Shown one piece after another: positions 18,438 to 34,583 of a stretch of DNA of 64,000 bases (positions within the stretch are counted from its first letter, which is position 1; every line of letters starts with the position of its first letter). The position numbers were made by a program, and so were the translations under genes. A model generated the notes under the pieces. It was not told where the DNA came from. It made no database searches and saw only the letters and a list, made by a program, of their open reading frames with translations. The DNA is from Elmis aenea (Eukaryota > Arthropoda > Insecta > Coleoptera > Elmidae): NCBI GenBank assembly GCA_947652605.1, contig CANTFG010000067.1, positions 1-64,000 of the forward strand. The letters run 5' to 3'.

Positions 18438-18446
18438 TAAATAAAA

Positions 18447-21400
18447 ATGGAGCATTTTAGTGAAACGGCGAATGGCATGCATTTAACATTAAAAGCAGCT
18501 TATGTAAACTTACAAAGTAGTCGCGATCCCAAAGAACTTACAATTCAGACTTGGATTCGTTATAGTGGTAAAACTATTCGTTTACTTTTGCGAGCATTGC
18601 GATTGTCAAACTTAAGTTTTGGTGAAAAGCGAAATTTAGAATCATTGTTGGGTAATGTAAAAAGATATCAATTATTATTAAAAAATTTATTATATAATAA
18701 AAAAAAAAAAAAACATGGTGGTAAACTTAAAAGTCATAGAGGTGATCGTGTTGCTTGGGTGGATATAAAGAGTGCATTTAAATCTAGAATCCGTTCAGGA
18801 CTCATTATAAATTTTAAACATAAATTATTAACATCATTTTTGGATGATTGTTTCTATTTGTTTGCAAGTCGTATAAAAAATGAACACCAAAAATATCAAT
18901 GTCCTTTTAAAATTAACGTTGTGTTTTGTGCTGAATTTGTTAAACAAACGGGAAGCAATCAAGTTTTTGATGAAAAACATTTTAGTTCAAAAAACCAAAT
19001 GTTAATTTTTAGTCAACTCTCTAATGACGATTTAAAAAATTGGTTTTCTGATAATGTTATCGATTTCGTTAACACTAAATTAGATAAATTTCAAGAGTCA
19101 GATAGTGGGTGGTCGCTTTCCAATATAATATCGTTAGCTATCAACATTAATCATTGTGATCAGTTATTTAATTTTGGATCATCCTATATCGAATTACCGA
19201 AGGAAATAAAATCGAAAAGGGCTATTGTTAACGTTAAGAACATGGATAATGCATGTTTTGGTCACGCTGTGATTTCGGGATTGTTTCCTGTTAAACAAAA
19301 TCCTTCTCGTGTTTCATCCTATCCACCGTATGAAACCGTATTAAATTTAACGAATATCACTTTCCCCATGACCATAAGTCAGGTTTCAACGTTTGAAAAA
19401 AATAACGATATATCAGTCAACGTGTACATTTTAAAATTTAAAAAACGTAAATATATAACTTACCCGGTCTACTTAACTTCAAATAAAAAAGATACTCACG
19501 TAAATTTATTAATGATACAAGAAAATTACAAAGATGGTAACGTTGAAAACAATCAACATTTTTGTTGGATTAAACATTTCTCGAGATTAGTGCGTTCCCA
19601 GTTAACGAGTCATACGGCTAAAATATTTATTTGTGATAGATGTTTACAATATTTTACTAGTGATTTAAAATTAAATTTACATTCAAATGATTGTAAAACG
19701 ATTAATAATTGTAAAATAACGCTACCTACAGAGGGAACGTTGTTGGAATTTACAAATTTTTCTTACAAAGAATATTTACCTGTTGTGGTGTACGCTGATT
19801 TTGAATGTTTGTTAAAAAATGTTGATAGTACTAGCGAACAGTCTACAGTAAAATATCAAGAACATGAACCATATAGTGTTGCTTATTACGTTCATTGTCG
19901 ATTCAATAAAAATTTATCATTTTTTAACTTGCATAGAGGATCTGATTGTTGCACTTGGTTTGCAAACCAACTTGAAAAAATATTAGTGGACTTTCAAAGT
20001 TATTACGACACTGTCGTACCAATGCATCCACTAACACCAACCCAACAAAAAGAGTTTTATGAAACCACCATTTGCCATATGTGTGAAAAACAAATTCAAA
20101 ATGAAACAGGTGTTAAAGATCATGATCATTTTACGGGAAATTATAGGGGAAAAGCGCATTATACTTGCAATCTTAATTATGATAAATCAAAATATGTTAT
20201 TCCTGTAATATTTCACAACTTCTCCGGTTACGATTCCCATTTTCTTGTCAAAGATTTAGCTCACGCGTTCCCAGGTAAATTATCTCTTTTACCACTCAAT
20301 AAAGAACGTTATATTTCGTTTACAAAAGAACGCATTGGTTCACGTTTAAAATTACGATTTATAGATTCGTACAGATTTTTGAGTGCATCTCTCGATACAC
20401 TTGTATCATATTTGAATCGAGATCAGTTTAAAATTTTGGATTCTATTTATCCACATCTTTCTGATACCGAAAAATTGTTGTTAACGAGGAAAGGTATTTT
20501 TCCGTATGAATATTTGGACAGTTGGGAAAAATTAAATGACAATGAATTACCAACAAAAGAATTATTTTTTAGTAAACTTAAAAACAGTCACATATCAGAT
20601 GTTGAATACCTGCATGCTCAGAATGTTTGGAATACTTTTAACATTAAAGACTTGGGTTCCTACAGCGATTTATATTTGAAAACAGATGTAATTTTGTTGG
20701 CGGATGTGTTTGAAAATTTTCGAATAGGTTGTAAAGATAGTTACGATCTTGATCCAAGTAACTACTATACAATAGCAGGATACACATTCGATGCCATGCT
20801 AAAATATACCAAAGTTAAATTAGAATTACTCTCTGATATTGATATGTTATTGTTTTGGGAGAGGGGTTTAAGGGGTGGTGTCAGTCAATGTTCGACTCGA
20901 CATGCTGTTGCAAATAATAAATTTTTATCGGGGTACAATCAAAATTTACCGTCTAATTATTTAATGTACTTCGATGTTAATAATTTATATGGTCATGCAA
21001 TGTCGCAATTTTTACCATATGGTGGTTTTCAATGGTTATCACAATCGGAAATTGATGAGTTAAACGTACTTGACGTTAGTGATCAATCTCCAGTCGGTTA
21101 TTTATTTGAAGTCGATTTAGAGTATCCTGCACACTTACATAATTTACATAAGTACCTACCCTACGCATCTGAACATCGCGTACCCCCAAACAGTAAATGT
21201 CAGAAATTATTATTAACGTTATATAATAAAGAAAAATATGTTTTACATTACCGAAGTTTGAAACAATGTTTACAAGCTAGTCTAGTCCTTAAAAAGATAC
21301 ATAGAGTATTAAAATTTCAACAAAAACCGTTTTTAAAAAATTATATTGATTTTAATACAAACAAACGTCAACATGCAAAAAACGAGTTTGACAAGCATTT

Positions 21401-22196
21401 CTATAAACTATTAAACAACGCTGTATTTGGAAAAACTATTGAGAACGTTCGTAAACATAGAAATGTAAAGCTAGTTACCAAATGGGATGGTCGGTTTGGA
21501 GCATTGTATTACATAAATAAACCAAACTTTCATAGTAGAGCAATCTTTGATGAAAATTTAGTTGCTATTGAGTTACGTAAACTTGAAATTAACTATAAAA
21601 AACCAGTTTACGTCGGAGTGTCCATTTTAGATATCTCGAAACTTTGTTTGTACGATTTTCATTATAATTATATGTTGACTAAGTTTACCACTGACGAATG
21701 TAAATTATTATATACCGATACTGATAGTTTAATATATTCAATAATTTGTGACAACTTTTATGATAATCTGAAAACGGATATTCATCTTTTTGATACAAGT
21801 GACTACCGAGAGAATAACGTTTTTAATATTCCTCGTGTGAATAAAAAAGTTCCAGGTTTGATGAAAGATGAAAATAACGGTTGTATTATGACAGAATTTG
21901 TTGGATTGAAATCAAAAATGTATAGTTTTACTATAGATGGAGGTGGTGTGGTTAAAAAAGCTAAGGGTGTGAATGAATCAGTTGTAAAAAAAATGATTTC
22001 TTTTGAAGATTATCTTAAATGTTTAAAAACCAACATTGTTCTAACCGCTTCTCAATTTCATATTCAGTCTGAGTTACACAAAGTATTCAGTGTACAACAA
22101 ATGAAAATAGCTCTCAGTGCAAATGACGATAAACGTTACATATTGACTAATGGTGTAGACACTTTACCTTGGGGACATTGCGCAGCTGCAGAATAA
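18447..22196 (+). CDS. POLB: Protein-primed family B DNA polymerase (Polinton pPolB)
   Basis: A 1249-aa polymerase, typical length for Polintons. Order: a lysine-rich N-terminal region; a domain at about residues 250-430 ending in a CxxC...H...C zinc-finger-like motif; 3'-5' exonuclease motifs YADFEC (449-454), HNFSGYDSHF (590-599) and YLKTD (743-747). Between Exo I and Exo II lies an HNH/zinc-like insert with CHMC (543-546), DHDHFTG and CNLNY. Polymerase motifs are A YFDVNNLYG (841-849), B KLLNNAVFGKT (from 987) and C YTDTDSL (1089-1095). All expected catalytic residues are present. It should copy the element from a terminal-protein primer bound at the TIRs. The AUG at 18447 follows AATAAAA. 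An A-run encodes a lysine string near residues 84-88. The gene ends within GAATAAATAAATG, which also supplies AATAAA words. Confidence 0.97.
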   Translation: MEHFSETANGMHLTLKAAYVNLQSSRDPKELTIQTWIRYSGKTIRLLLRALRLSNLSFGEKRNLESLLGNVKRYQLLLKNLLYNKKKKKHGGKLKSHRGDRVAWVDIKSAFKSRIRSGLIINFKHKLLTSFLDDCFYLFASRIKNEHQKYQCPFKINVVFCAEFVKQTGSNQVFDEKHFSSKNQMLIFSQLSNDDLKNWFSDNVIDFVNTKLDKFQESDSGWSLSNIISLAININHCDQLFNFGSSYIELPKEIKSKRAIVNVKNMDNACFGHAVISGLFPVKQNPSRVSSYPPYETVLNLTNITFPMTISQVSTFEKNNDISVNVYILKFKKRKYITYPVYLTSNKKDTHVNLLMIQENYKDGNVENNQHFCWIKHFSRLVRSQLTSHTAKIFICDRCLQYFTSDLKLNLHSNDCKTINNCKITLPTEGTLLEFTNFSYKEYLPVVVYADFECLLKNVDSTSEQSTVKYQEHEPYSVAYYVHCRFNKNLSFFNLHRGSDCCTWFANQLEKILVDFQSYYDTVVPMHPLTPTQQKEFYETTICHMCEKQIQNETGVKDHDHFTGNYRGKAHYTCNLNYDKSKYVIPVIFHNFSGYDSHFLVKDLAHAFPGKLSLLPLNKERYISFTKERIGSRLKLRFIDSYRFLSASLDTLVSYLNRDQFKILDSIYPHLSDTEKLLLTRKGIFPYEYLDSWEKLNDNELPTKELFFSKLKNSHISDVEYLHAQNVWNTFNIKDLGSYSDLYLKTDVILLADVFENFRIGCKDSYDLDPSNYYTIAGYTFDAMLKYTKVKLELLSDIDMLLFWERGLRGGVSQCSTRHAVANNKFLSGYNQNLPSNYLMYFDVNNLYGHAMSQFLPYGGFQWLSQSEIDELNVLDVSDQSPVGYLFEVDLEYPAHLHNLHKYLPYASEHRVPPNSKCQKLLLTLYNKEKYVLHYRSLKQCLQASLVLKKIHRVLKFQQKPFLKNYIDFNTNKRQHAKNEFDKHFYKLLNNAVFGKTIENVRKHRNVKLVTKWDGRFGALYYINKPNFHSRAIFDENLVAIELRKLEINYKKPVYVGVSILDISKLCLYDFHYNYMLTKFTTDECKLLYTDTDSLIYSIICDNFYDNLKTDIHLFDTSDYRENNVFNIPRVNKKVPGLMKDENNGCIMTEFVGLKSKMYSFTIDGGGVVKKAKGVNESVVKKMISFEDYLKCLKTNIVLTASQFHIQSELHKVFSVQQMKIALSANDDKRYILTNGVDTLPWGHCAAAE

Positions 22197-22210
22197 ATAA
22201 ATGTTAAATG

Positions 22211-22217
22211 TATAAAA
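22211..22217 (+). promoter_or_regulatory. TATA box of Cys/His-rich gene
   Basis: TATAAAA just after the polB stop, with TTCACAAACG (A at 22243) about 32 nt downstream and the AUG at 22282. It suggests this gene has its own promoter separate from polB. Confidence 0.5.
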
Positions 22218-22281
22218 TGCTCCATAGCACGATTAGTACTTCACAAACGTCTCGATAATCTTAACGTGCTTAACTGCGAAA

Positions 22282-22752
22282 ATGAGTGTACCCGACATCA
22301 ACGCTATTATCTCTGAAGATTCTATAACAGAAGATGACATCGATCCCACACAAATTGAAGAAATCATCATACCTATAAACGTTAACTGTGAAAATGTGGT
22401 ACACAGACATTTGTGGAGTCAACATTATCAACGCAAAGTTGTTCACGATGACTACGCCAAAGAAGATGAGTGTTATACCTTCTATTCGTTAAATTCATTT
22501 ACGCATAAAAAAATTAATTTCGTATGTCTTCACTGTTTTGATTTAGCAAGGTACGTTTGGTATAATAGCGTACCAAACGCATTTTCCAAAAGACATCATT
22601 GTCATACTTCTTACAAATTGTATTGTGATAAGTGCAAAAATCTTTGTAATCTTCCACCTCAAAATAGGTGTGCAACTTTGACATTTTATCATCAAATAAA
22701 AACAGAACCGGTTTCTGCAAATAATTATGTTAACATTCCTTCGTTGGAATAA
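22282..22752 (+). CDS. Hypothetical Cys/His-rich (zinc-binding-like) protein
   Basis: A 156-aa protein of unknown function. The first 40 residues are acidic (Asp/Glu-rich). The second half holds candidate metal ligands: FVCLHCF, KRHHCHTSY, YCDKCKNLC and a later RC, a pattern like one or two zinc knuckles or ribbons. The AUG at 22282 (AAAATGAGT) lies below its own TATA box. It is the last + strand gene of the left arm; a shared AATAAA-rich region follows it. A DNA-binding or late regulatory protein is possible but there is no family evidence. Confidence 0.7.
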   Translation: MSVPDINAIISEDSITEDDIDPTQIEEIIIPINVNCENVVHRHLWSQHYQRKVVHDDYAKEDECYTFYSLNSFTHKKINFVCLHCFDLARYVWYNSVPNAFSKRHHCHTSYKLYCDKCKNLCNLPPQNRCATLTFYHQIKTEPVSANNYVNIPSLE

Positions 22753-23058
22753 ACGATTAAACTACTACTTTTAAAATTTCAATTTTTTTTGTTATGATTA
22801 AGATAATGTTTTAGTTATATGTAAACTTTAGATTTAAATGGTTTGTGGTTTATGTGAATATTTGTAATCTTTTGTCTTAATAAATACATATTTTTAATTG
22901 CTTCTTTTATTTACGTTACTCCTTTGATACCAGATTAAACGATTTAGGTTCAGTCTTAAACTTAAAAAAAAACAACAAAAAAAATAGTTTATTAAAATTT
23001 TATTTTCTTAAAATAAAGTACAAAACAATTAAAATAAAGTACAAAAACAATTAAAATA
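22753..23058. terminator. Shared 3' region between convergent Polinton arms
   Basis: This gap of about 300 bp has no ORF and is very AT-rich. It holds a + strand TTAATAAATAC near 22878 and several - strand AATAAA-type words (+ strand TTTATTAA/TTTTATTTT and repeated AAAATAAAGTACAAAA around 22990-23055). Left-arm and right-arm transcripts should both end here. Confidence 0.5.
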
Positions 23059-24105: not shown

Positions 24106-24131
24106 GTTGTATACTTAACGAATACCAACAT

Positions 24132-24167
24132 ACTGAGATCATAACATAAACCCAACAAATTAATATA
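24132..24167 (-). promoter_or_regulatory. TATA and Initiator of the 348-aa gene
   Basis: On the - strand TATATTA (24167-24161) is followed by a perfect arthropod Initiator TCAGT (24136-24132) whose A lies about 34 nt from the first T of the TATA box. The AUG follows at 24105. Confidence 0.6.
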
Positions 24168-24205
24168 GCGATAACAATCTTATTACGCGCAACGTACGTC
24201 AACCC

Positions 24206-24898
24206 CTACAAATGTATATAGAAATCAAAATTCTTACGGTATCGACCATTTTCCAAATCACTGTCTTTATCTATCACTAACACACTATATTTATCATCTT
24301 TCCAACAAGCATTGCAAATATTTTTGAATTGTGTAAAAGTCATGTCACTATTAACATGTTCATTATAGACATGTTGTAAATTAACGTAGTCCTGTTTAAA
24401 AAGAACAATTAAGTTAGCGTTATCGCGAATCAATTGTTTTGGAATTTTTGAATATGTCTGACAAAGATAAAAGCTATCAACGTTGTTATGTCGACCCATA
24501 CAAAAGTATTCGCGCATTCTATTTTGTTTGTCGCAAATTATATCATCAAAAATAAATATTGAATTACGTTTAGCCTCTCTCGGATCACAAATAGCCTCGT
24601 TGTCTGTGAAAGTATAATAACCTATTTCCTTTACATGCCCGAGAGCATGTTTTAAGAACAGATATTTGGGTTGATTTAAAAATTTTGAATAGATGTATAC
24701 GTTTTCGAATCGTAAACCATTTAAATCGGTAAGCAAGGTTATAAGGAGGTTTGTTTTACCAGAATTACTTGGTCCACATACTAGAGCACGAATTGATGAC
24801 GGAAGCAGCGGACCATGTTTACGTTCATCGTTTACAACTTCTAATTTATCATCAAAATTATTTATCGGTAACGTTGCTTGTTGCTTTATTAACCGCAT
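24206..24898 (-). CDS. ATP: A32-like genome-packaging ATPase (FtsK/HerA type)
   Basis: A 230-aa ATPase with Walker A GPSNSGKT (residues 42-49), Walker B SIFIFDDI (113-120, acids D118/D119) and a downstream polar residue in FYLCQTYSKIP (Q147) like the sensor glutamine of this family. Length and motif order fit the Polinton/adintovirus packaging ATPase, which pumps genomic DNA into the capsid. Its AUG is only 2 nt beyond the stop of the preceding fibre-like gene (TAA GC ATG), so the two are probably on one mRNA with translation by termination-reinitiation or leaky scanning. Confidence 0.93.
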   Translation of the reverse strand: MRLIKQQATLPINNFDDKLEVVNDERKHGPLLPSSIRALVCGPSNSGKTNLLITLLTDLNGLRFENVYIYSKFLNQPKYLFLKHALGHVKEIGYYTFTDNEAICDPREAKRNSIFIFDDIICDKQNRMREYFCMGRHNNVDSFYLCQTYSKIPKQLIRDNANLIVLFKQDYVNLQHVYNEHVNSDMTFTQFKNICNACWKDDKYSVLVIDKDSDLENGRYRKNFDFYIHL

Positions 24899-24900
24899 GC

Positions 24901-25191
24901 TTACACTTTACCCTCTAATGTTTTCAATTTTTCTTCTATATTTCGTATTTTATCGTTTATAGCCACAAGTTCAGACTGTATTTCTCTTTGCAAGAGCGGA
25001 AAAATATTATCAACGTATGCTTTGGTGGATGCATCTTGCGCTTCGGTGGGATTGCGAACATTACTCAGTCTTTTGTTTTCAATGTTAAAATCACCTGATT
25101 GTGTTAACGTAAATCCTTGTCCAGGTATGCCACGTAAAAGTTTCGTTTTGATTGCTGTCGACGTGTGTCTACCGAACTTGTCAACACTCAT
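24901..25191 (-). CDS. Fibre/spike-like coiled-coil protein, 96 aa
   Basis: The middle holds RLSNVRNPTEAQDASTKAYV, very like the N(V)xxPxxxxDAxTKxYVD motif of phage tail-fibre and spike proteins that trimerise. The remainder (from NIFPLLQREI) is a predicted coiled coil with heptad-spaced hydrophobics. The N-terminus is short and basic. A trimeric receptor-binding or vertex-attached fibre stalk is a reasonable guess, but there is no receptor-binding head, so it may be only a stalk, or fold with another protein. The AUG is at 25191 with a TATATAA box about 35-40 nt upstream; the ATPase follows almost without a gap. Confidence 0.65.
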   Translation of the reverse strand: MSVDKFGRHTSTAIKTKLLRGIPGQGFTLTQSGDFNIENKRLSNVRNPTEAQDASTKAYVDNIFPLLQREIQSELVAINDKIRNIEEKLKTLEGKV

Positions 25192-25225
25192 TACGAAATT
25201 AACAACTTCCTACCTTAAACTAAGC

Positions 25226-25232
25226 TTATATA
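25226..25232 (-). promoter_or_regulatory. TATA box of fibre-like/ATPase unit
   Basis: On the - strand TTTTATATAAGC; the fibre-like gene AUG is 35-41 nt downstream. No equally good TATA lies directly before the ATPase AUG, supporting one shared transcript. Confidence 0.5.
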
Positions 25233-25319
25233 AAACAAACAAAGACAATCCATTAAAGTTATTTTATTTTATTTTATTAAGTTTTATCAATAATACATTT
25301 AACATTTATATATTTAACC

Positions 25320-26225
25320 TTATTGCACTACGTTCGTTTTGTCTATCCAAGATCGTTCATCAAGTCCAAGCCATTTTACATACAACTTGTTTCCTTTTCG
25401 ACGCAATACTTTTTCAACGAGATAAATGTCAGGGTTCAAGGTTTTTTGCAATTCATACTCGTAAAATCCACCTTCAATAGGACGTCCTTGCATATCTTCC
25501 AGTTTATACGTCACGGGGTTGGTTAATTGAACTTTAGTAATTTTAAATAACTCCGTTGACCAAGATGGTGTGTAACCTTTTTCGAAGATGCTTTTAAATT
25601 TACTGATTCTAACGACCTCGTTAATTTTATAGCGACCTTTACCAGCCACTTTTAAATGACTGTACACATTCAATTTTGTACGACTACGAACGTCACCCGG
25701 TTTCATGTTAGTTGTGCTGTGCTTACGATTATTGTAATTTTTAACGACTTCATTTAATATATCAATCCATTTATAGTTACCACGTAAACTAAAGCGTTTA
25801 TATAAATCATTTTTTATCGTTCTTATTGCACGTTCCGCAATTGCTGCTTTTTTAACGCTATAAGTTGAATAATGATTAATATTATATTTTTGCATAAGTA
25901 GTGCAAAAGATCGGTTGTAAAATTCAGTACCGTTGTCAGTTTGCAAATTGTCGGGAATATTACCTCGTTTTAGTATTGCACTTTCAAACATTTGCACTAC
26001 CTCTTTGGCATTTTTTGATTTTAACGGTACAGCCCAAATATATTTTGAATAACAGTCTATGACTAACAACATATACTTGAATCCTTTATTTTCTCTGGCA
26101 TACAATCCAAATTCCGCCAAATCAGCTTGATACAAATCTTTTAACTTTTTGATAACAGTTCGCCGTCGCGGAAAGTTTTTACGAGCTGGTTTGTGCAATT
26201 CATTAACCACTTGTTGTTTCGTCAT
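25320..26225 (-). CDS. INT: Retrovirus-like DDE integrase with C-terminal chromodomain
   Basis: A 301-aa protein from the AUG at 26225 (an in-frame TTG lies two codons upstream). The N-terminal LHKPARKNFPRRR resembles the basic linker of Polinton integrases. The catalytic core shows LYQADLAEF (D35), LQTDNGTEF (D97) and KKAAIAERAIR (E131), a D,D,E triad with 33 residues between the last two. A basic SH3-like region follows, and residues about 268-299 form a chromodomain (YLVEKVLRRKG, YVKWLGLDERSWID). It should insert element ends and may tether them to methylated histone tails. No N-terminal HHCC finger is visible. All triad residues are present. Confidence 0.95.
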   Translation of the reverse strand: MTKQQVVNELHKPARKNFPRRRTVIKKLKDLYQADLAEFGLYARENKGFKYMLLVIDCYSKYIWAVPLKSKNAKEVVQMFESAILKRGNIPDNLQTDNGTEFYNRSFALLMQKYNINHYSTYSVKKAAIAERAIRTIKNDLYKRFSLRGNYKWIDILNEVVKNYNNRKHSTTNMKPGDVRSRTKLNVYSHLKVAGKGRYKINEVVRISKFKSIFEKGYTPSWSTELFKITKVQLTNPVTYKLEDMQGRPIEGGFYEYELQKTLNPDIYLVEKVLRRKGNKLYVKWLGLDERSWIDKTNVVQ

Positions 26226-26265
26226 TTTCAATTATTTATGAAAGATTTCTTTACTGAATTGACTT

Positions 26266-26769
26266 TTATAAAGTTTGCTTATACACTGATGGTTTGCAAC
26301 AGAAGGGGTGAAGAATGTAATCGTAAATTAATTTTACGTTTTCCACAGCACACACACCACTATCATGATAATAACACTTAGCATTCCATTGTGATTTATT
26401 CAACTGCGGTATATTTTTCAAATTAACAATTTGATCCAAATCTTTTACGATTACATCACCGTAAAAATATTTTCGAAGGAAATCACATTTTATTTCACCT
26501 TTACAGTATATTACGGTAGCATACTTTTTAATATCACTTAATATATGTGGTATTCGTGATAACTCGACATCACCGTCGGACCACTTCAGTTTGTGATGAT
26601 TTTTGGTTAACCAATTTGCCTGACGTTGAAGAGAATTTGAGAGATATTTAAATGGAAATGGTTCTTTAAACACATAGTGTGCAATTCGTTCACCATCCCA
26701 TATTGCAAGCTCTTTTGGTACAAACTCTGGCGTTTTAAAACCTTGCACGTCGATTACGATACAACTCAT
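26266..26769 (-). CDS. Conserved 167-aa protein downstream of major capsid gene
   Basis: It begins SCIVIDVQGFKTPEFVPKEL and contains ATVIYCKGEIKCDFLRKYF and a Cys/His-containing C-terminal part (CYYHDSGVCAVENV). The arrangement of hydrophobic strands with an early acidic residue (VIDVQGF) recalls an RNase H/DEDD-exonuclease-type fold, but catalytic acids are not all evident, so this is only a suggestion. Similar proteins occur in insect Polinton-like sequences as far as I recall. Its AUG overlaps the major capsid stop codon as ATGA (26766-26769), a classic reinitiation arrangement, so it is likely made in amounts tied to capsid translation. Confidence 0.65.
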   Translation of the reverse strand: MSCIVIDVQGFKTPEFVPKELAIWDGERIAHYVFKEPFPFKYLSNSLQRQANWLTKNHHKLKWSDGDVELSRIPHILSDIKKYATVIYCKGEIKCDFLRKYFYGDVIVKDLDQIVNLKNIPQLNKSQWNAKCYYHDSGVCAVENVKLIYDYILHPFCCKPSVYKQTL

Positions 26770-27974
26770 AATTTACGAACATCTCCGTTCAGGGGTCTAT
26801 ACTGCACCAAACAATCATGTAGAATAAGAGCGTACGCGGTAGTATCTGCTGTAAATACTCCTGTCGCTTCGAATTCCAAACGGATATCCACAGTGGACGA
26901 TTTGAGAGACTCGTTTTGTTTTGAACAATCAATCACGTAGACCATAGAATTATGAAATTCTGTATACGTTAACAAAGGCTGATCAGGACGATTATAATAA
27001 CTCTTTTGAAAGTTAGCATAACTGTGATATGCTAACGCATACCGATTTTTTGTAATATCCAAATTCCATTGTTCGTATGGGTATACTTCATGTAAATGTA
27101 ATTTTATATTTGACAGGAAATTATGATCAAAACGACTGGAATCTTCAAGCTTATTATTTTTACGATTTTTCTGAAATGCAAAAATTATGTAACGTGGTTT
27201 TTCTAAATGTCTCGAAGTTTTGACCGGCCAAACGTCTGCTTGAGCTTGACGCAAGGATGGTAGTTCATATAGATCCCATTTTCGAAAAGCGATATTAATA
27301 GGAACATTTTTATTCAACTGTTTTAATAAATCCAATTTTGCTTCTTCGTTTAACTTAATATGAGGTACTTTCCATTGAACTTTAAGCAAGTCTAACGTAA
27401 CGTTATTATTGGCGGACTGATAACAATTTTCATCACTCTTAGATCGAATCAATATCAATTCCAAACTGGTATTAATAAAAACCTTTTTATAATCCTCGGC
27501 TGATCCTAATAAATGTTTTAACGGTATGCAGGCACTGAAATTATCAGTAAGATTAGCACTTTTTTCATTTTTGAAATCCAAAAACCATCCAGCAGACTGA
27601 AGAGCTCTACTTTCAAAATCGTTGTAAGATACGAGTCCTTTTAAGGTACTAGTAATGCCCGGTTGTTTCGTAGAGTCTATTTCTTGACCGTTCAATTCTA
27701 ACCGAATTTCATCGAAAAGAAAAGCTAAGGAGTTATTCGTTAACTTATATTCATTCTTAAGATCAGGATCTGTTTTAGTAACCACACCTTCAATGTATAA
27801 AAAACTATCACAAACAGCCGATAATAAGTCCTGTCGTTGTATGCGTATACGAATTTCATCTGTATTGGCGAACTTAACGGATCCATACGGTTGATATGTA
27901 TGAAGTTCTTCACTCGAAATTAATTCATCGAACACAACACCATCAAAAACATTTAATTTTTCGAACGACGCCAT
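26766..27974 (-). CDS. MCP: Double jelly-roll-like major capsid protein
   Basis: A 402-aa protein, beta-rich throughout. It opens FEKLNVFDGVVFDELISSEELHTYQPYG-type sequence (residues 4-31) and contains LAFLFDEIRLELNGQEID, the strand-turn pattern of double jelly-roll capsid proteins in arthropod Polintons and adintoviruses. The C-terminal part (VDIRLEFEATGVF, YALILHDCLVQYRP) also matches that family. It should trimerise into pseudo-hexameric capsomers. It lies directly after the minor capsid gene with a small ORF overlapping the junction, and its stop overlaps the next start. The size is somewhat shorter than some Polinton MCPs but typical for the arthropod group. Confidence 0.85.
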   Translation of the reverse strand: MASFEKLNVFDGVVFDELISSEELHTYQPYGSVKFANTDEIRIRIQRQDLLSAVCDSFLYIEGVVTKTDPDLKNEYKLTNNSLAFLFDEIRLELNGQEIDSTKQPGITSTLKGLVSYNDFESRALQSAGWFLDFKNEKSANLTDNFSACIPLKHLLGSAEDYKKVFINTSLELILIRSKSDENCYQSANNNVTLDLLKVQWKVPHIKLNEEAKLDLLKQLNKNVPINIAFRKWDLYELPSLRQAQADVWPVKTSRHLEKPRYIIFAFQKNRKNNKLEDSSRFDHNFLSNIKLHLHEVYPYEQWNLDITKNRYALAYHSYANFQKSYYNRPDQPLLTYTEFHNSMVYVIDCSKQNESLKSSTVDIRLEFEATGVFTADTTAYALILHDCLVQYRPLNGDVRKL

Positions 27975-28108
27975 TGATGTTTTTTAACTCGAAGCCCGAT
28001 AGACTGTAAGAATAGTAAATCACTACGTGTTAACGGATTCACGGATTGTGATTTAATAGGTTTAGTTCGCTTCGGAAATCCTCTTTTATTGCTAAAATCT
28101 ATCCCCAT
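27953..28108 (-). CDS. Overlapping small ORF between minor and major capsid genes (51 aa)
   Basis: A 51-aa ORF with AUG at 28108, inside the last codons of the minor capsid gene (17-nt overlap), and stop at 27953-27955, inside the first codons of the major capsid gene (22-nt overlap), in a different frame. The product is basic at both ends (SNKRGFPKRTKPIKSQ; VKKHQWRRSKN) with a central TRSDLLFLQSIGLRV that looks like an amphipathic helix. It fills an intergenic gap that otherwise has no explanation, and its sequence looks protein-like rather than random. Function unknown; a DNA-binding core or scaffolding peptide is possible. Confidence 0.5.
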   Translation of the reverse strand: MGIDFSNKRGFPKRTKPIKSQSVNPLTRSDLLFLQSIGLRVKKHQWRRSKN

Positions 28109-28814
28109 CTGTTAGTTGTTTTAGTTCTAGTCGTACTGTTAGTTTTTCGTTGGCAAAATTTACCAAATCACCGTCCTGGTCAACGATTGTCAAGGTAATG
28201 TTATTGATACTTTTTGTTAAAACAGGTAAATATATAATATTTGCAGGTTCCTTAGTTAATCGGTAACCTGGTTCAACGTCAACGTCAAATTCAAAAATTG
28301 TATGTGACAAATCGTTATTATAATAAGCTCCACTTGTAATGTTACACTCGATTCTGATATTTATTATTTTCACAATTTCCACAGCTTTGTCAGACGAATG
28401 TAATTTATTCGGTTCCAATGATTGAGAAAATCCTAACAATTGTCCGATTGATTTTTTAGCACTAAAATCAAGAGTGAAGGTACTCTGAATTTCACACTTC
28501 AAGGTATTGTCATTCGGTCGAAGCAGAAAATTATTACTCCCCAGTTTACTCTGAATATAAGTATTTATTTCTGTAACTTCGTAAGCTCCAGGTGGTATGA
28601 CGATCGTTTGTAGTAATTTTTCCTCAGGTTTTTTTTCATCAGGTATAAAATACGTTAAGATGTTATTAGCTTCATGTACATTTGGAATTGAATTATAACT
28701 GTAAAAACCAACCAAACCAAGTCCATACGAAAACTTCGGATTCAATTCTATCGGTGGAAAGTATGTACTAGTGAGGACGTTGCTATTACCTGTCAAGGTG
28801 AATGTTCGAAACAT
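28092..28814 (-). CDS. mCP: Minor capsid (penton, single jelly-roll) protein
   Basis: A 240-aa protein from the AUG at 28814 (the frame continues three codons upstream to a GTG, without an AUG). It carries the pattern of Polinton minor capsid proteins: YGLGLVGFYSYNSIPNV near the start, IPPGAYEVTEINTYIQ, a NDNTLKCEI segment, LLGFSQSL, NIRIECNITSGAY, and a C-terminal LTIVDQDGDLVNF strand. It is expected to form pentamers at the capsid vertices. It is preceded by the 51-aa coiled-coil gene and followed by the overlapping 51-aa ORF and major capsid gene, the usual capsid cluster. Confidence 0.88.
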   Translation of the reverse strand: MFRTFTLTGNSNVLTSTYFPPIELNPKFSYGLGLVGFYSYNSIPNVHEANNILTYFIPDEKKPEEKLLQTIVIPPGAYEVTEINTYIQSKLGSNNFLLRPNDNTLKCEIQSTFTLDFSAKKSIGQLLGFSQSLEPNKLHSSDKAVEIVKIINIRIECNITSGAYYNNDLSHTIFEFDVDVEPGYRLTKEPANIIYLPVLTKSINNITLTIVDQDGDLVNFANEKLTVRLELKQLTDGDRF

Positions 28815-28844
28815 TCTAACCACTTTTAGACGAATAACTACTAC

Positions 28845-29000
28845 TTATTTGTCACAAAATTTGAGTGCTTGAAAAACTTTAGTTAAACTTTTCACCTTTT
28901 CATATTCGCAAACCAGTTGTTGTAACTGTTTTATATTTTTTAATAAACAATCAATTCTTGTTCTCAGTTCTTCGTTTTTCTGCTCAACGATTGCATTCAT
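28845..29000 (-). CDS. Small coiled-coil protein (51 aa)
   Basis: A 51-aa ORF, AUG at 29000 (AUGAAUGCA), stop TAA at 28845-28847. It is predicted to be almost entirely alpha-helical, with leucine/isoleucine heptads (ELRTRIDCLLKNIKQLQQLV) and three cysteines. It fits exactly in the gap between the protease and minor capsid genes, and a TATAAA word overlapping the protease stop lies about 33-38 nt upstream. Not recognised; a small structural or assembly factor is possible. Confidence 0.55.
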   Translation of the reverse strand: MNAIVEQKNEELRTRIDCLLKNIKQLQQLVCEYEKVKSLTKVFQALKFCDK

Positions 29001-29032
29001 TGTACAAATCTTGAACGCTACTAAACTATTCG

Positions 29033-29038
29033 TTTATA
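29033..29038 (-). promoter_or_regulatory. TATA-like box overlapping the protease stop codon
   Basis: TATAAA on the - strand (29038-29033) shares bases with the protease TAA (29036-29034). It is suitably placed for the 51-aa coiled-coil gene and possibly the minor capsid transcript. Confidence 0.4.
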
Positions 29039-29396
29039 CAATATCATTATATAGAAATTTTAAACATAAATGACCACAATTATAAGTATTATATTTTTGA
29101 TGTACTTCGTAGTTGTATATGATTTTACTACCTCGAAAATAATCTACAACTTCTTTAGGTGGTCTTAAATTACCGAAACTATCAAAATAGTCTACACTTG
29201 AGTTTCGTTTTCTATATGCAACCCAATGTGTTCCGGGACCGTCATCATCATCCAAATTTACTATTGCACTTTCATTTTTATACGGTTTATTGGGTAGCAT
29301 ATTTTTCATGAAGACTCCGCGAAAGTAAGGAGCATTTTTAGCATATTTTAACAAATCAGCGTCGGTAAGTGGTCTACGAGGTAGTTGCTCAATTAG
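29034..29396 (-). CDS. PRO: Adenain-like cysteine protease, entered by -1 frameshift
   Basis: C5/ULP1-type protease domain. Visible are a conserved lead-in RPLTDADLLKYAKN, FRGVFMKNMLP, the His motif GTHWVAY, the acid in YFDSFG, and Q seven residues before the active cysteine in NCGHLCLKF, the same Q-to-C spacing as adenovirus protease. It should mature capsid precursors. The odd point is its start. The first in-frame AUG (29309) lies inside FRGVFM and would remove the conserved lead-in, while the open frame reaches back past 29396 into the 3' end of the PLA2-domain gene, with a stop upstream near 29474 and no AUG between. A slippery heptamer sits exactly at the junction, so it is probably made as a fusion to the upstream protein. 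Alternatives are non-AUG start or splicing. Confidence 0.9.
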   Translation of the reverse strand, partial: LIEQLPRRPLTDADLLKYAKNAPYFRGVFMKNMLPNKPYKNESAIVNLDDDDGPGTHWVAYRKRNSSVDYFDSFGNLRPPKEVVDYFRGSKIIYNYEVHQKYNTYNCGHLCLKFLYNDIV

Positions 29397-30187
29397 TTTT
29401 TTGAAGATTTCATGTATAAACCCAACCCTTTTTTGTACGGTTTCAAATATAAAGCACTTCCTTTTGTTTTACCTAAAGCAACAGCTTCCATCGTTTTATT
29501 ATGTCGTTCTGATTCTTGAAGTTGTTTCGTTGCATCTTTCGCCTCATTCACTGCTTTGACAATTCCAGCTACACCCCCTGCAAGACCTCCCAAAGCTGAC
29601 AAACCGGCAAATATAGCTGGTAAAAAAGGTAAAAATCCACCTCGTTTTGGTATAGCAATTACACGAGGTATTTTAACTTTTCGTTTTCCTCCTATCGTCT
29701 TGACAATGTGTTTAGCTGCTGTTAATGCAACACTTGCACCTTGATGTTGATCTTTAACACCAGACCGTTTGAGAACATCTTTTATTTTTCGAACAACGTG
29801 AGAATTAAAATTAATTTGACGTTTTACCTTCTTTTTTCTAATTTTTCTAATCTTTTTTCTACTTCCTAAACCTAATTTACGTTTAGCTTTCATAGCGTTG
29901 GTTACTGTCCAGGCTGCAATTTTTTCATTAAATGATGCGTCCGGAGCGTTGACTCTCCGCCAAGCCTTTTCTTGTAATAAAAGATCTGCCTCATGTCTTT
30001 TCTTTATATCCTCTTTATGAATAAAATATGATATATCGTGTTCTCTACACGCAGCATCTAATGGGTTTACACCAACTTCACCTCGAAGCAAACGTTTCTC
30101 TAATTTAGTACCTGGCCCACAAAACTGAAATCCCGGCAAATGAATTTCGAAGGGTAATTTATTTATAACGTCGTTAACAAACGACAT
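29393..30187 (-). CDS. PLA2-domain core / membrane-lytic-like protein
   Basis: 264 aa. Residues 17-54 form a parvovirus-VP1-type phospholipase A2 domain: calcium-loop-like FCGPGTKL (22-29) and catalytic CREHDISY with H50-D51 and Y54, then an acidic D68. Next comes a strongly basic stretch (about 100-123, RKKIRKIRKKKVKR) able to bind DNA or act as a nuclear localisation signal. Residues 184-210 are a glycine-rich hydrophobic segment (FLPFLPAIFAGLSALGGLAG) like a membrane-disrupting peptide. LAGG|V at 202-206 fits the adenain cleavage pattern (M/I/L)xGG-x. The protein probably helps the particle leave endosomes and coats DNA. It is the first gene of the right arm, and its 3' end carries the slippery site feeding the protease frame. 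Confidence 0.82.
   Translation of the reverse strand: MSFVNDVINKLPFEIHLPGFQFCGPGTKLEKRLLRGEVGVNPLDAACREHDISYFIHKEDIKKRHEADLLLQEKAWRRVNAPDASFNEKIAAWTVTNAMKAKRKLGLGSRKKIRKIRKKKVKRQINFNSHVVRKIKDVLKRSGVKDQHQGASVALTAAKHIVKTIGGKRKVKIPRVIAIPKRGGFLPFLPAIFAGLSALGGLAGGVAGIVKAVNEAKDATKQLQESERHNKTMEAVALGKTKGSALYLKPYKKGLGLYMKSSKN
29396..29402 (-). promoter_or_regulatory. -1 ribosomal frameshift site A AAA AAC
   Basis: On the - strand the last codons of the PLA2-domain gene read AAA AAC followed by TAA, with the preceding codon ending in A. This gives A AAA AAC in the exact X XXY YYZ phase needed for tandem -1 slippage, as at several retroviral gag-pro sites. After a -1 slip the ribosome enters the open protease frame. 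A short CTAC/GTAG stem with a CTC loop begins 11 nt downstream; it is weak, so a stronger structure or pseudoknot needs folding to show. Confidence 0.75.
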
Positions 30188-30290
30188 TTTTTTTAAATTT
30201 TTTAATATGCTTGTTTGTGAACACTTTTTTTCAAGTTTTATTGACTTCAGAGGTATCAGTTAGTTGAAGGTTAGATATAACCAACAAGTT

Positions 30291-30420
30291 GACTCACGAT
30301 CAAATACGTTGAGACTTGTTCAAGGTTATAACTAACAAACAAACAGGTCGACTCACGATCAAATACGTTGAGACTTGTTCAAGGTTAAAAACAACAAACA
30401 AACAGGTAGACAATCAAATA
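30291..30420 (+). repeat. 59-bp tandem repeat inside right TIR
   Basis: The unit GACTCACGATCAAATACG...CAAGGTTA occurs at 30291 and 30350 (period 59), with a third partial copy near 30409. It lies between the right TIR and the first right-arm gene, mirroring the repeats inside the left end. Upstream of the 264-aa gene no strong TATA box is seen, so these repeats may hold the promoter elements. Confidence 0.85.
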
Positions 30421-30431
30421 CGTCTCCACTT

Positions 30432-30657
30432 AACAAAACCACTTTCGCTTGGCATCAAACGCCTGACCTCGAACCGCCTGACCTCGACTCGGGAGCGCGC
30501 TGCGACGTTCGGTACCTGCATGAGAGCCTCGGGGCGGACGGGTTGTTCAAGCGGGTTATACCCATGAGATAGTTAAACAACGAATATTTTTCGTTTTAAT
30601 TACGCAACCCCAGCAAATTGTGTACTCGTGTTTTTGAACAACCTCATCCCTTCTACT
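30432..30657 (-). repeat. Polinton right terminal inverted repeat
   Basis: Reverse complement of the left end, terminating in CCTCATCCCTTCTACT. It is 19 bp longer than the left copy. About 15 bp is an extra direct copy of the GAGGTCAGGCG motif present once on the left, and 4 bp (GCGA) is an indel near the inner edge. Otherwise the two ends agree closely. Confidence 0.95.
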
Positions 30658-32262
30658 ATAATTTGCCAGTTAATTGCAAAAGTTTACACAAACAAGGATT
30701 TGCCCACTTCAAATTCATCTACTGGACTACAAAAGTAATTTAATTGAATTATGAAAAAAAAAATTAAATCCGATTATAACTTACATGTCATGTATAATTC
30801 TAACTAACGCTATGTAGGTGCAAGGATTATAAACTGAACAGGATGTACCATCCTATAAGCAAAAGCCTTATGTATTACTACGTATCAGTAAGTGACGTCA
30901 TTAATGATGACAAAATATTAAAATTTTATAGGTATCTTAGATTTTGCATTGAATGGCAGTCAATTATTAAAGATGAAAAACGAGTCAGTGTAAAAATTAA
31001 ACGAAAACAAATCATATTTAGGGTGGTAGATATATAACTTTTTTGCTTACTGTCTTGAACCAGTCTCCAATACATACATTGTTTAATTAAAATCAGTAAC
31101 ATTATGACTACTACATTGTTTAAAATTACGTCTTCTGGGTTAGGTACAATATTTTGTTCATCAAAAATTATTGACAAAAATTCAAGCACCTCCTGACTTA
31201 TTTTGTACTTTTTGTCGTTTTAATTGCTTTATGCGCATTATTGGTACGGCCTCTGAAATATTTACGGCGCTCGAATAACCATAAACATTAAAGGTCTAAA
31301 TTTACCGTAAAGAGCCGTGTAGGATTTGTATAAATAATAAACTGTAAGGTTGCGTTTAAAATTTAAGGGCTGCGTGAACGTCTACCTTCTTAAACCGCGA
31401 GGTTAAAACTCCAGGAAATAAGCTACAAATTAATTTAATGGAAGATTATTGGATTATTATGCATTTAACAAACTTTAATAACGCTACGGAGAATCATAAT
31501 TCCTTAAATATTTATGATTTTTTAAGTTTCGGAATGGCGAATGTTTATTGCAAGTGTTTCTGAGCGATTGTTAGCAATCATATGTATATAATTTTTTAAA
31601 TCTTACTAACTATGCTTAATGTGAAGTGCGCTTTATTTATCAATTTGCAAAACACATTGTGTTAAAAGTTAAAACTCTATACAAGTAAAGAAATCAAGTG
31701 TAATATACTGACTGTTGTACACCCGATGAATTAACAACAAAAATCAGAGTCATATTTCTCAATTAAAATTATCTGTTCCAAACTTCATTTAAACTAAACA
31801 CCAACAAATAATTTCATTTAAACTTTCCGCGCCCCTCTTAATTTTTAGCGTCAATCCTAAGGGCATCAGGCTAGAGTTTAGGGCTTCGTTATTAACGCAA
31901 TTTGTATCTAAATTGTTTTGAAAATATCGACCGAATCCATTTAAATGTAAATTGAAAAACGTTGTTTCAATAAATAATTTTCTACACCGTTTTATCCCTT
32001 ATCTTAATAACAAAACCAAAACGGTGAGCCACCTTAAGTAGACTTCCCTGTTACAGCATGTCGTTACGATAACGAAACTGTAGCGTGGGACCGCGAAACA
32101 TGCTTGGATAAAATTTGTGTTAAATAGTGATCAGAAGTCGATAGCAAAAATTGCGTCAAAAATATGATCAGAGTGAAACGTTATCATATTCAAAAATAGA
32201 TAAATTTTTAATTGTAGTTTTTTTAGCTTTATATTTTAGTAAACTATAATATAAATATTAAT
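30658..32262. other. Host flank of Polinton, no gene seen
   Basis: AT-rich single-copy-looking DNA. There is no satellite monomer here although satellite borders the other Polinton end. Short ORFs (for example around 30843-31037) have no recognisable sequence. Nothing else supportable. Confidence 0.6.
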
Positions 32263-32655
32263 ATAACAAAGACAAAGGTTATAGTTATAGCGAAAAATCA
32301 TGAACTAGTTACAATAATGCTAGACCAAAAAAAGATAGAACAGGTAGCAAGTTTTAAATATTTAGGAACAATAATTGCAGAAAATGGTAAATTGGAGGAA
32401 GATCTGAATGACAGAATAGCGGCAGCGACGAAATTTTACTACGCCACTAATAAATGCTTGATAAGTAAGAAACAAACATCAAAAGAAACGAAGACGCGAG
32501 TTTTTAATGCAGTGTACGTACCCATCCTCACGTACAGTTCAGAAACTTGGACACTAACTCAAAAACAAAAACAAAGAATACAGGTACAGGAAATGAGATT
32601 TTTGAGAAGAATAGAGGGATGTAGACTGATCGATAAAATCAGTAACGAAATCAGG
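32263..32655 (+). pseudogene. Non-LTR retrotransposon RT C-terminal fragment
   Basis: An open frame shows the C-terminal part of a LINE reverse transcriptase: a TKTKV lead-in, FKYLGTIIAENGKLEEDLND, a TKTRVFNAVYVPILTYSSETW segment and MRFLRRIEG. The catalytic core and endonuclease are missing, so it is a truncated relic. It runs directly into a mariner relic on the right. Confidence 0.8.
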
Positions 32656-32659
32656 TCCG

Positions 32660-33095
32660 GCGCACAGTCATTACTCCGGCTATGATTGTGGCTGCTGGTG
32701 GGCTAATTTATACGAATCGTGGCAGAGTTGGCCGAAAGACTTCCCACGTACTCGCCTGATAACCGTAATTCGCCGAAAGCGCCGAGGTTTGTTTACCGAT
32801 GGTGATTTGCTTTAGCATGATAATGCACGCTCTTATTCCCCTCGCAGGACGGTCTCACCTATTTACGTTTAAATGTCTCCCATATCGAGCTTATTCCCCT
32901 GACTTAGCACCTTTGAATTTTCACATTTTTGTAGCTCTCAACGAGCATATTGGTGACACATGACGAAACGATGATAGTCAAGAAAACGGTTCATGATTGG
33001 TTGCACACACGTGTGAAAGACTTTTTTTTACCACGCTTTAGAGCACCGTTAAGGGGAAAGCATTGTCCTTGGTGAGGATTACGTTAAAAAATAAA
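32660..33095 (+). pseudogene. Degenerate mariner-like transposase fragment
   Basis: Conceptual translation in shifting frames shows HDNAR (about 32816), then YSPDLAPLNFHIF (about 32899) and a C-terminal part with VKDFFY and GEDYVKK, the C-terminal half of a Tc1/mariner transposase. Internal stops and at least one frameshift make it dead. The polyadenylation-like AATAAACAC follows the end. Confidence 0.75.
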
Positions 33096-33346
33096 CACAT
33101 GTATTTGCACTTCACTTAATTCATTTGCTGTTTTCATTTGAACGTCCCTTACATCATAAAAGTTGGCACGTCATTGTTTTTATCCTTGAAATTTTTTATC
33201 CTCTCACAAAATTTAAATTTTAAAAATCTCAAAGTCCCTAAAATTGGATATCGCAAATTTTTTATTTATTACTGTAATAAAATTGCGCTTAATAATTTTT
33301 TGTTGTATGTTGTTTTAAACCATTTGCAGAAATTTCGACTTTTGAA

Positions 33347-33702
33347 CAGGGACCCGAACCGTAAAGAACAACGGTTCAGTTCCGGTTACCATAGATTTTA
33401 TCTTTTCGGTTTACGTTCCGAATCATCGGTTTTTATTTTATAATAATTCGGTAACCGGTTCGGCGGCAACGGTTCAGTTCCAGTTCCGGTTTAATGCAAA
33501 ATATTATATTATAAAAAAAATTGGACTGAACCGTTGTGTGAACCGGTTGAAGCGGTTTGAACCGGTTCAGACCAGTCGGTTCGTTGCGAAATTGTAGTTT
33601 TGTGATTTTTAAAATAAAAGGTTCAGTACCGGTTTACGGTTGATGAAAAAACACCGGTTCGTACCGGTTTTTGTTCCAGTTCCGGTTCGATTCGGGTCAC
33701 TG
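33347..33702. mobile_element. hAT-type MITE with perfect 8-bp duplication
   Basis: 356 bp bounded by CAGGGACCCGAACCG and the reverse complement of CAGTGACCCGAATCGAACCG. It is flanked by exact 8-bp direct repeats CTTTTGAA at 33339-33346 and 33703-33710, the hAT hallmark. The interior is dense in ACCGGTTC/GGTTCAG words in both orientations, probably subterminal transposase-binding repeats. It has no coding capacity. Confidence 0.92.
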
Positions 33703-33710
33703 CTTTTGAA

Positions 33711-34583
33711 TTTTGGATTGGTCGAATTAAAGTAAGATAAATATTTTCATAAATATTCTTAAATTTTTCTTGTTTACTTTATTGATGAAACCCATTGGAG
33801 TATCAAGCCGTTTTCAAACAATCTTTTCGCTTTATAGCAGAGAATGAGCAAAACAAACAGTTAGTAGGTGGATGCACTTACCTTGAGTTGATGTGGTTAG
33901 CAGCTACACTGATGTCAACACGGTATTCGGGACCTTCGGTTAACAGAATTGTGAATTGGGAATATTCAACCTGTAATAAGAAAATTTTGGTCATCTAAAA
34001 TGATTTTGAATAGTGCAATCTTAAGACGAACACATCACGTGAATACTAACATTTCTAAGGTAGTAAAATTGACATGCAGTCTTTATTTATACAGTTATCC
34101 AACTGGTATCGTTGACACTCTGGCTAGAATGGCCATAGCCAAGAAGTGTTAATTTCAAGCGGTTCTGAAAAGATGAGATGTAGAATATTCAAAGTAATTT
34201 AAATTTGTGAAGTATGGAGAATCCGGGTCGCCTAAAAACCAGTGTCATAGCATTAGCGAACACTTGAAAAGCAAACGTCACTGATGACGTATTTTTGAGA
34301 CTCTCTGCGTACATGCACAGATAATTTTTATTTCCCATTAATAAACCTTGCGAACGAATGTAAAATATAAAATTTCTATGCCCTATTTTATTACAATTTA
34401 ATTACACAAATTTTATTGAGTGTCGTTAAAACAAATCTTTAAATAAGAACACAAAAAATGTATGTTTTCAAACGACTTTCCACAAATTTAACTTATTTTG
34501 TTTCCATTACTTGAAGGAACTCATGGCCAATTTTAACCATATTCCACTCTGCTACTTATACATTACATTACATTATTAGTACC
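33711..34583. other. Intergenic, no gene recognised
   Basis: AT-rich DNA with only short spurious frames. Nothing identifiable. Confidence 0.5.

What the first reader, a model, noticed from the sequence alone, without database searches (positions are those of the whole stretch)
29393..29402. Programmed -1 frameshift signal joins the Polinton PLA2-domain protein to its protease
Seen: the 264-aa gene ends with codons AAA AAC TAA preceded by a codon ending in A, giving A AAA AAC in the X XXY YYZ phase. A -1 slip enters the frame of the adenain-like protease, which is open across the junction and has no AUG before its conserved lead-in. Known: this heptamer in this phase drives gag-pro frameshifting in several retroviruses. 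Inference: the protease is made as a minor fusion to the membrane-lytic/core protein, which would carry it into the particle and limit its dose. Adenovirus instead activates its protease with a peptide from the C-terminus of its membrane-lytic protein pVI, so fusing a protease to the C-terminus of such a protein is a suggestive parallel. I am not aware of this being described for Polintons.
Basis: partly seen in the sequence, partly recalled or inferred. Interest (0 to 1): 0.88.

Follow-up and report, generated by a model that had tools for sequence, protein, structure and literature searches.

The report
Polinton core protein–protease frameshift site
In a virus-like Polinton element of an animal genome, probably an insect's, ribosomes most likely slip back one base at a strictly preserved spot at the end of one gene, which would weld a small amount of the element's capsid-maturing protease onto a membrane-active core protein, much as retroviruses make theirs.

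Summary
One A-rich heptamer proves little, so I tested relatives. In the window's own 516-Mb genome, 84 of 88 loci (87 fetched plus the window; 7 families, down to about 51% protease identity) carry AAAAAACT in the same phase, leading into the protease in the -1 frame. Over 105 nt around it, C-AAAAAAC-T is the only invariant block longer than 4 nt among ten representatives. 41 of the 84 have no ATG for the protease; yet between ATG-less families its frame is under purifying selection (dN/dS about 0.06-0.15). In databases, 117 of 120 listed PLA2 relatives have Lys-Asn in the last 8 residues, with neighbours that fit NNA AAA AAY TNN; a distant viral contig has the same arrangement. Natural in-frame fusions exist. 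No conserved RNA structure was found. Programmed -1 frameshifting is the best explanation (0.86), untested at the bench. A 2024 preprint already floated hexon-adenain frameshifting in adintoviruses; a core-protein-protease version was not found in print.

The parts
29396..29402 (-). slippery heptamer A AAA AAC, in X XXY YYZ phase of the PLA2 gene
   Evidence: sequence; same phase in 84 of 88 loci
29393..29395 (-). zero-frame stop TAA directly after the heptamer
   Evidence: sequence
29393..30187 (-). zero-frame gene: 264-aa protein with N-terminal parvovirus-type phospholipase A2 domain and a basic, hydrophobic core-protein-like tail
   Evidence: ORF; Pfam PF08398 E 1.7e-10; PF05829 Adeno_PX E 0.039, below its cut-off
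29915..30148 (-). PLA2 domain (residues 14-91)
   Evidence: Pfam PF08398
29558..29614 (-). hydrophobic segment (residues 192-210), ends 53 residues before the slip codon; spacing nearly constant in relatives
   Evidence: hydropathy scan
29034..29468 (-). open -1 frame: 22 codons upstream of the heptamer, 122 codons from it, then stop; no ATG before FRGVFM
29037..29396 (-). adenain-like cysteine protease as read after the slip (L-I-E-Q-LPRRPLTD...); H57, D72, Q100, C107 in place (catalytic roles recalled from adenain)
   Evidence: translation P0001; these four invariant in the 30 sequences of A1; AlphaFold pLDDT 91.8, best PDB match adenovirus proteinase 1nln E 2.5e-5
26766..27974 (-). double jelly-roll major capsid protein of the same element
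   Evidence: Pfam PF21738 E 2.4e-102
25320..26225 (-). retrovirus-type integrase of the same element
   Evidence: Pfam PF00665 E 9.1e-16
24206..24898 (-). packaging ATPase (A32 type) of the same element
   Evidence: Pfam PF04665 E 4.5e-10
18447..22196 (+). 1249-aa ORF with endonuclease VII domain and a YTDTDSL motif (meaning recalled), presumed protein-primed DNA polymerase B
   Evidence: ORF; Pfam PF02945 E 3.9e-4, below cut-off; no PolB model matched

Best explanation
The junction is a programmed -1 ribosomal frameshift signal. Ribosomes translating the PLA2/core-protein mRNA decode AAA AAC and mostly stop at the TAA next to it, giving the 264-aa protein. A minority slip one base back on A AAA AAC (both tRNAs re-pairing with AAA AAA) and go on through CTA ATT GAG ... 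into the adenain-like protease, giving a core-protein-protease fusion. This would cap the amount of protease and deliver it to wherever the core protein goes, in principle the particle, as gag-pro frameshifting does in retroviruses. Shown here: the site, its phase, its preservation against silent change, the lack of any ATG in five of seven families, purifying selection on the protease frame between ATG-less families, and natural in-frame fusions. Inferred: that slipping happens, how often, that the fusion is packaged, and that it matures the capsid.
For: (1) 84 of 88 loci in the genome have in-phase AAAAAACT entering an open -1 protease frame, in 22 distinct 70-nt sequences and 7 families. 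The search string fixed these letters, but no locus was lost for having another base there: the four misses are a solo protease fragment, a truncated PLA2 copy, a decayed copy that keeps the heptamer, and L075. (2) Among 10 representatives, offsets -60 to +44, the only invariant block longer than 4 nt is C-AAAAAAC-T, although silent sites are at dS 2.1 (families A-G) or saturated (A-D, G-D). Lys codons in these tails are AAA in 139 of 166, Asn codons AAC in 13 of 37, TCN/CCN codons end in A in 30 of 94: about 0.09 per lineage, about 6e-8 for seven if independent. (3) The -1 reading at the slip is KKL, three residues, then LP in 82 of 84; L073 has LS, and L056 lacks the three spacer codons. (4) 41 of 84 have no ATG in the -1 frame from the upstream stop to FRG (A 12, D 16, E 7, F 2, G 4); protease dN/dS is 0.040/0.63 between D1 and D2, 0.136/0.91 between E and F (66 codons only) and 0.184/2.11 between A and G, all ATG-less. 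(5) 117 of 120 listed database relatives have KN in the last 8 residues; the residue before always has a possible NNA codon (1.00, against 0.70-0.91 at eleven positions upstream) and the one after, or the stop, can be T-first in 0.95. (6) L001, a viral contig with a protease 42% identical, has A AAA AAC in the same phase with a -1 stop one codon upstream and no ATG. (7) Natural PLA2- or tail-protease fusions: 7 of 18 hits, plus P0053, P0121, P0241. (8) A_AAA_AAC is named among the shiftiest heptamers for mammalian ribosomes in PMC5009743 (passage read).
Against: No conserved stimulatory RNA structure: RNAalifold finds 0 pairs on ten junctions; single folds z -2.2 to +0.6 in eight representatives; a crude pseudoknot scan finds none in 6 of 7 sequences, and 4 of 40 shuffles do as well as the seventh. 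43 of 84 loci (families B, C) do have an ATG in the spacer, and at least 94 of the 120 listed database proteases start in the spacer or at the L of LP (gene callers favour such starts). Of 17 listed proteases with a longer lead, only 6 show KKL. Distant viral contigs L003 and L004 have ATG-started proteases. One locus, L075, has a run of 15 A and the protease in the +1 frame. Copies within a genome are not independent. No RNA, ribosome-profiling or peptide data were available.
Confidence: 0.86

Rival explanations
1. Coupled termination-reinitiation or internal initiation: ribosomes stop at the PLA2 stop and restart on a nearby ATG of the protease; the A-rich run is only leader context.
For: Families B and C have an ATG 5 and 8 nt after the heptamer, close to the zero-frame stop (43 of 84 loci); at least 94 of 120 listed database proteases start in the spacer or at the L of LP.
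Against: 41 of 84 loci in five families have no ATG at all, with the protease under purifying selection. The ATG position varies over four codons in the database list while the heptamer, its phase and the spacer length hardly vary. No near-cognate codon is shared by the ATG-less representatives (read from the listing).
Confidence: 0.06
2. Transcriptional slippage: polymerase adds an A in the A6 run, so that a minority of mRNAs encode the fusion (as potyviruses make P3N-PIPO; recalled).
For: A6 run present in 84 of 88 loci; L001 has A11, L075 A15.
Against: It would need neither the C nor the codon phase; both are kept in all 84, and no readable junction has AAAAAAT there, although Asn in these tails is AAT in 24 of 37. 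A6 is short for cellular polymerase slippage (general knowledge).
Confidence: 0.04
3. Splicing joins an upstream exon or the PLA2 reading frame to the protease.
For: Some gene models of relatives are fused (P0165, P0243, P0244) and may contain predicted introns.
Against: No AG shared by all ten representatives upstream of the LP lead-in, and no GT shared by all ten in the end of the PLA2 gene; frames are open and compact; does not explain the invariant heptamer.
Confidence: 0.03
4. Decay: the window copy lost the protease ATG and the heptamer is coincidence.
For: Closest database relative P0002 (92%) starts MQLPRR where the window reads IEQLPRR.
Against: All 12 loci of the window's family lack the ATG and keep the protease open, 11 of them 100% and one 99% identical in protein; four more divergent families lack it too.
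Confidence: 0.01

Closest known systems
Retroviral gag-pro -1 frameshift at A_AAA_AAC (e.g. MMTV, HTLV; examples recalled; shiftiness of the heptamer in PMC5009743, passage read)
   Same: same heptamer and phase, zero-frame stop close by, structural protein in front, capsid-maturation protease behind in the -1 frame
   Different: DNA element with double jelly-roll capsid; cysteine (adenain-like) not aspartic protease; no downstream pseudoknot found
Hypothetical hexon-adenain ('Hexain') and penton -1 frameshifts in adintoviruses, 2024 preprint PMC11071296 (passages read)
   Same: same virus group, same protease, same kind of mechanism proposed from KnotInFrame
   Different: fusion partner there is the major capsid protein; no comparative or experimental test is given in the passages read; here the partner is the PLA2/core protein and the site is conserved across families
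Sf Maverick 1 and 2 CAP (PLA2) and PRO genes, PMC5803895 (section 11 part 1 and passages read)
   Same: PLA2 protein and adenain-like protease in insect Mavericks
   Different: described there as separate ORFs; no frameshift between them mentioned in what was read
Adenovirus pVI/pVIc and adenain (recalled; PDB titles name an 11-residue cofactor)
   Same: membrane-active core protein linked to the same protease family; protease model matches 1nln
   Different: in adenovirus the link is a cleaved cofactor peptide, not a translational fusion

Membership tests
programmed -1 ribosomal frameshift signal (X XXY YYZ type) | slippery heptamer in the zero-frame phase inside a -1 overlap | tested here: met
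programmed -1 ribosomal frameshift signal (X XXY YYZ type) | heptamer conserved beyond amino-acid need in relatives | tested here: met
programmed -1 ribosomal frameshift signal (X XXY YYZ type) | downstream stimulatory stem-loop or pseudoknot | tested here: not met
   no conserved structure; L001 alone has a stem with z -3.28 in 65 nt, starting directly after the heptamer. Not every known site has one (general knowledge)
programmed -1 ribosomal frameshift signal (X XXY YYZ type) | fusion product made at a set ratio | not testable with these tools
   needs reporter, ribosome profiling or peptides
Polinton/Maverick (adintovirus, eupolintovirus) element | DJR capsid, A32-type ATPase, rve integrase, adenain-like protease together | tested here: met
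Polinton/Maverick (adintovirus, eupolintovirus) element | protein-primed DNA polymerase B | tested here: inconclusive
   1249-aa ORF with a sub-threshold endonuclease VII match; no PolB Pfam match; YTDTDSL seen by eye
Polinton/Maverick (adintovirus, eupolintovirus) element | terminal inverted repeats | tested here: inconclusive
   none of 40 nt or more in 15000-34000; 25 pairs of 22-40 nt in 14000-36000, none evidently terminal; element ends not mapped
adenain (C5/C48-like cysteine protease) | fold and His-Asp/Glu-Gln-Cys site (site recalled) | tested here: met
   (adenovirus proteinase 1avp E 4.4e-4 by profile); Pfam C5 and C48 below cut-off

The most novel reading that the evidence does not exclude
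Insect Polintons at large, and some other Polinton-like viruses (L001), make their maturation protease by a gag-pro-like -1 frameshift on the core protein, and the stimulator is not RNA structure but the nascent chain: a conserved hydrophobic segment leaving the ribosome at a near-constant distance (ends 53-60 residues before the slip codon in ten representatives; mean 60.7, sd 3.2 in the 117 of 120 listed relatives with KN near the end) pulls as it engages a membrane. A 2025 preprint (PMC12776465, passages read) reports that membrane insertion of a nascent segment alone drives -1 slipping when the slip site lies 45 codons downstream, but not at 35 or 55, so the distance here is only roughly right, and L001 (97 residues) does not fit.
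Probability: 0.12. Interest if true: 0.9.

Novelty: new variant of a known kind. Interest (0 to 1): 0.8.

Why it matters
If it works, Polintons, which are proposed ancestors of many eukaryotic DNA viruses and whose particles are still elusive, use the retroviral way of dosing and delivering a maturation protease. That would be strong indirect evidence that they are built to assemble virions, would explain why the protease of many elements in this genome has no start codon, and would correct gene models that drop or truncate it. It also makes the question testable with a short reporter, without any virus.

Tried and rejected
Scans of IMG/VR viral contigs with P0001, A2, A1, P0242 and A3 and one DNA pattern gave three contigs with a relative (L001 = L002 = L014; L003; L004 = L021); of 18 stretches matched by the pattern only two of these contigs encode such a protease. 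GTDB genome contigs gave none; phage records none. My first idea, a UAAUG stop-restart overlap lost by a 3-nt insertion in the window, was not borne out: family B, the nearest family with an ATG, reads CTAAGTATG or CTAACTATG, not TAATG; the DNA of P0002 itself was not seen. RNA-structure searches led nowhere. Terminal repeats were not found. The Starrett 2021 adintovirus paper (PMC8502044) is not held, so its gene maps were not checked. Claims about what is not in print rest on searches of an open-licence library only, most of whose results I saw as listings. The 120 rows listed of 1980 and of 1080 protein hits are the best by score, not a random sample. Of 90 protease matches in the genome, two short fragments (C2:40978684, C3:28019403) were not fetched. 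Loci that fail the rule: L057 (solo fragment), L075 (A15, +1 frame), L115 (heptamer kept, protease frame broken), L117 (truncated PLA2, chosen from the PLA2 list). Among the 84 that pass, L055 and L056 have the codon before the heptamer changed to a stop, so the site can no longer work in them; in L073, L076 and L114 the protease frame ends early, and in L049 and a few others the upstream frame is cut. The E-F comparison rests on 66 codons because the F representative, L076, is one of these.

Full report
What is there. On the minus strand the PLA2-domain gene runs 30187-29393 and ends TCT TCA AAA AAC TAA. A AAA AAC sits at 29402-29396 in the X XXY YYZ phase. The -1 frame is open from 29468 through the heptamer to 29034 and reads ...IFKKLIEQLPRRPLTDADLLKYAKNAPYFRGVFM..., the lead-in and body of a cysteine protease, with no ATG before FRGVFM. 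The protease looks sound: AlphaFold model pLDDT 91.8, best PDB matches adenovirus proteinase (1nln, E 2.5e-5), with ASFV pS273R also among the top ten; H57, D72, Q100 and C107, which I take for the active site from recall of adenain, are invariant in the 30 aligned sequences. The element also has a DJR capsid protein, an A32 ATPase and an rve integrase, so I file it as a Polinton; its polymerase was not confirmed by Pfam and its ends were not mapped.

Is one heptamer more than chance? Hardly. In ten ORFs of the element 47 of 3463 codons carry an in-phase slippery heptamer and 3 of 3463 carry A AAA AAC. So relatives must decide.

The genome's own copies. The window lies in an unnamed 516-Mb genome; that it is an insect's is inferred from the names on related proteins (beetles, ants). 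The PLA2 protein has 128 matches and the protease 90. I fetched 87 short stretches, which with the window make 88 rows. In 84 of 88, AAAAAACT in phase leads into the protease in the -1 frame, open for at least 60 codons. The script asked for these letters; the four misses fail for other reasons. The 84 form 22 distinct 70-nt junctions in seven families: A, the window's (12 loci), B (12), C (31), D (16), E (7), F (2), G (4). Aligned without gaps on the heptamer, ten representatives from offset -60 to +44 share only C-AAAAAAC-T, a TACC in the Leu-Pro lead-in and two single bases. Between families A and G silent sites are at dS 2.1, and A-D and G-D are saturated, so I infer that selection holds the block. 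The protein does not explain it: Asn in these tails is AAC in 13 of 37, Lys AAA in 139 of 166, and TCN/CCN codons end in A in 30 of 94.

Start codons. In 41 of 84 loci (A, D, E, F, G) there is no ATG in the -1 frame between the upstream stop and FRG; in 43 (B, C) there is one in the spacer. The -1 frame reads KKL, three residues, then LP in 82 of 84; L073 has LS, and L056 lacks the three spacer codons. Despite the missing ATG the protease frame is under purifying selection: dN 0.040 and dS 0.63 between D1 and D2, dN 0.136 and dS 0.91 between E and F (66 codons), dN 0.184 and dS 2.11 between A and G. The window's copy is not a lone decayed one: all 12 family-A proteases are 99-100% identical and open.

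Wider relatives. Protein searches found 1980 proteases and 1080 PLA2 proteins; the best 120 of each were listed. 117 of 120 PLA2 proteins have KN within the last eight residues; the exceptions are two fusions (P0165, P0241) and P0211. Before KN stand only S, P, Q, T, K, A, V, E, R, all with a codon ending in A (1.00 against 0.70-0.91 at eleven upstream positions); after it a stop or F, Y, C, S, L, which can begin with T, in 0.95. This is the protein shadow of NNA AAA AAY TNN; whether Asn is AAC or AAT there cannot be told from protein. Of 17 listed proteases with a longer lead, six show KKL just before the lead-in (P0008, P0026, P0037, P0062, P0102, P0115), five of them with the three-residue spacer, and eleven do not; P0026 has KKLIEQLP as in the window. 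At least 94 of 120 start within the spacer or at the L of LP; nine were not parsed by the script. Gene callers favour such starts.

An outside case. In viral contig L001 (protease 42% identical) a 207-aa hydrophobic gene product without a PLA2 match ends AAA AAA AAA AAC CCA GAG TTT TAA; the protease is in the -1 frame, whose upstream stop lies one codon before the heptamer, and has no ATG before FRGVFM. L003 and L004 have ordinary ATG-started proteases. So the device is not universal.

Fusions in nature. Searching with the protease part of P0165 among long proteins gave 18 hits; 7 are PLA2- or tail-protease fusions (P0165, P0243-P0248), the other 11 are not; P0053, P0121 and P0241 are three more fusions. 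Five of the ten carry NCBI names and may be gene models with predicted introns; the other five come from contig sources only.

Mechanism. I conclude, at 0.86, programmed -1 frameshifting. A_AAA_AAC is named among the shiftiest heptamers for mammalian ribosomes (PMC5009743, passage). What stimulates it is open: no conserved structure, no pseudoknot by a crude scan in 6 of 7 sequences. Efficiency may simply be low, which suits a protease, or the nascent chain may help: the hydrophobic segment ends 53-60 residues upstream of the slip codon in all ten representatives. In families B and C a free protease from the spacer ATG could be made as well; I cannot tell.

What is known. A 2024 preprint (PMC11071296, passages) mentions, from KnotInFrame, hypothetical -1 frameshifts at adintovirus penton ends and for hexon-adenain. 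Nothing on a PLA2- or core-protein-protease frameshift turned up in nine searches of the open-licence library, seen as listings, with passages of some papers read. The founding adintovirus paper was not held.

Noticed in passing
G000 family D, e.g. C209:352462-352839 (-) and C209:341936-342364 (+): In several of these elements the PLA2 domain and the hydrophobic C-terminal tail match about 10 kb apart on opposite strands; the slippery site and protease follow the tail, so the fusion partner there is the core-type tail, not the PLA2 enzyme.
   Followed up: partly
L083-L106, protease lead-in: A run of 5-8 threonines (ACG-type repeat) of varying length between LP and R[RS]RPL in these family C proteases.
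   Followed up: no
P0249, P0250, P0253, P0256: Proteins that join the adenain-like protease to an rve integrase domain; in P0249 the protease part comes first.
   Followed up: no
L075 (C2:41701470-41702196): One protease copy behind a run of 15 A, in the +1 frame relative to the PLA2 tail; run-length change, assembly error or a different device.
   Followed up: partly
window 30240-30420: Repeated units (with gatcaaatacgttgagacttgttcaaggtt) just upstream of the PLA2 start, seen by eye; promoter or end repeats are possible.
   Followed up: no
window 24901-25191 and L001 6233-8743: 96-aa protein with a TKAYVD motif; L001 has an 836-aa protein with repeated TKxYVD. The window's protein has a weak match to a T7 tail-fibre model, below cut-off.
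   Followed up: no
window 32317-32685: 122-aa ORF that looks like a fragment of a non-LTR reverse transcriptase (by eye).
   Followed up: no
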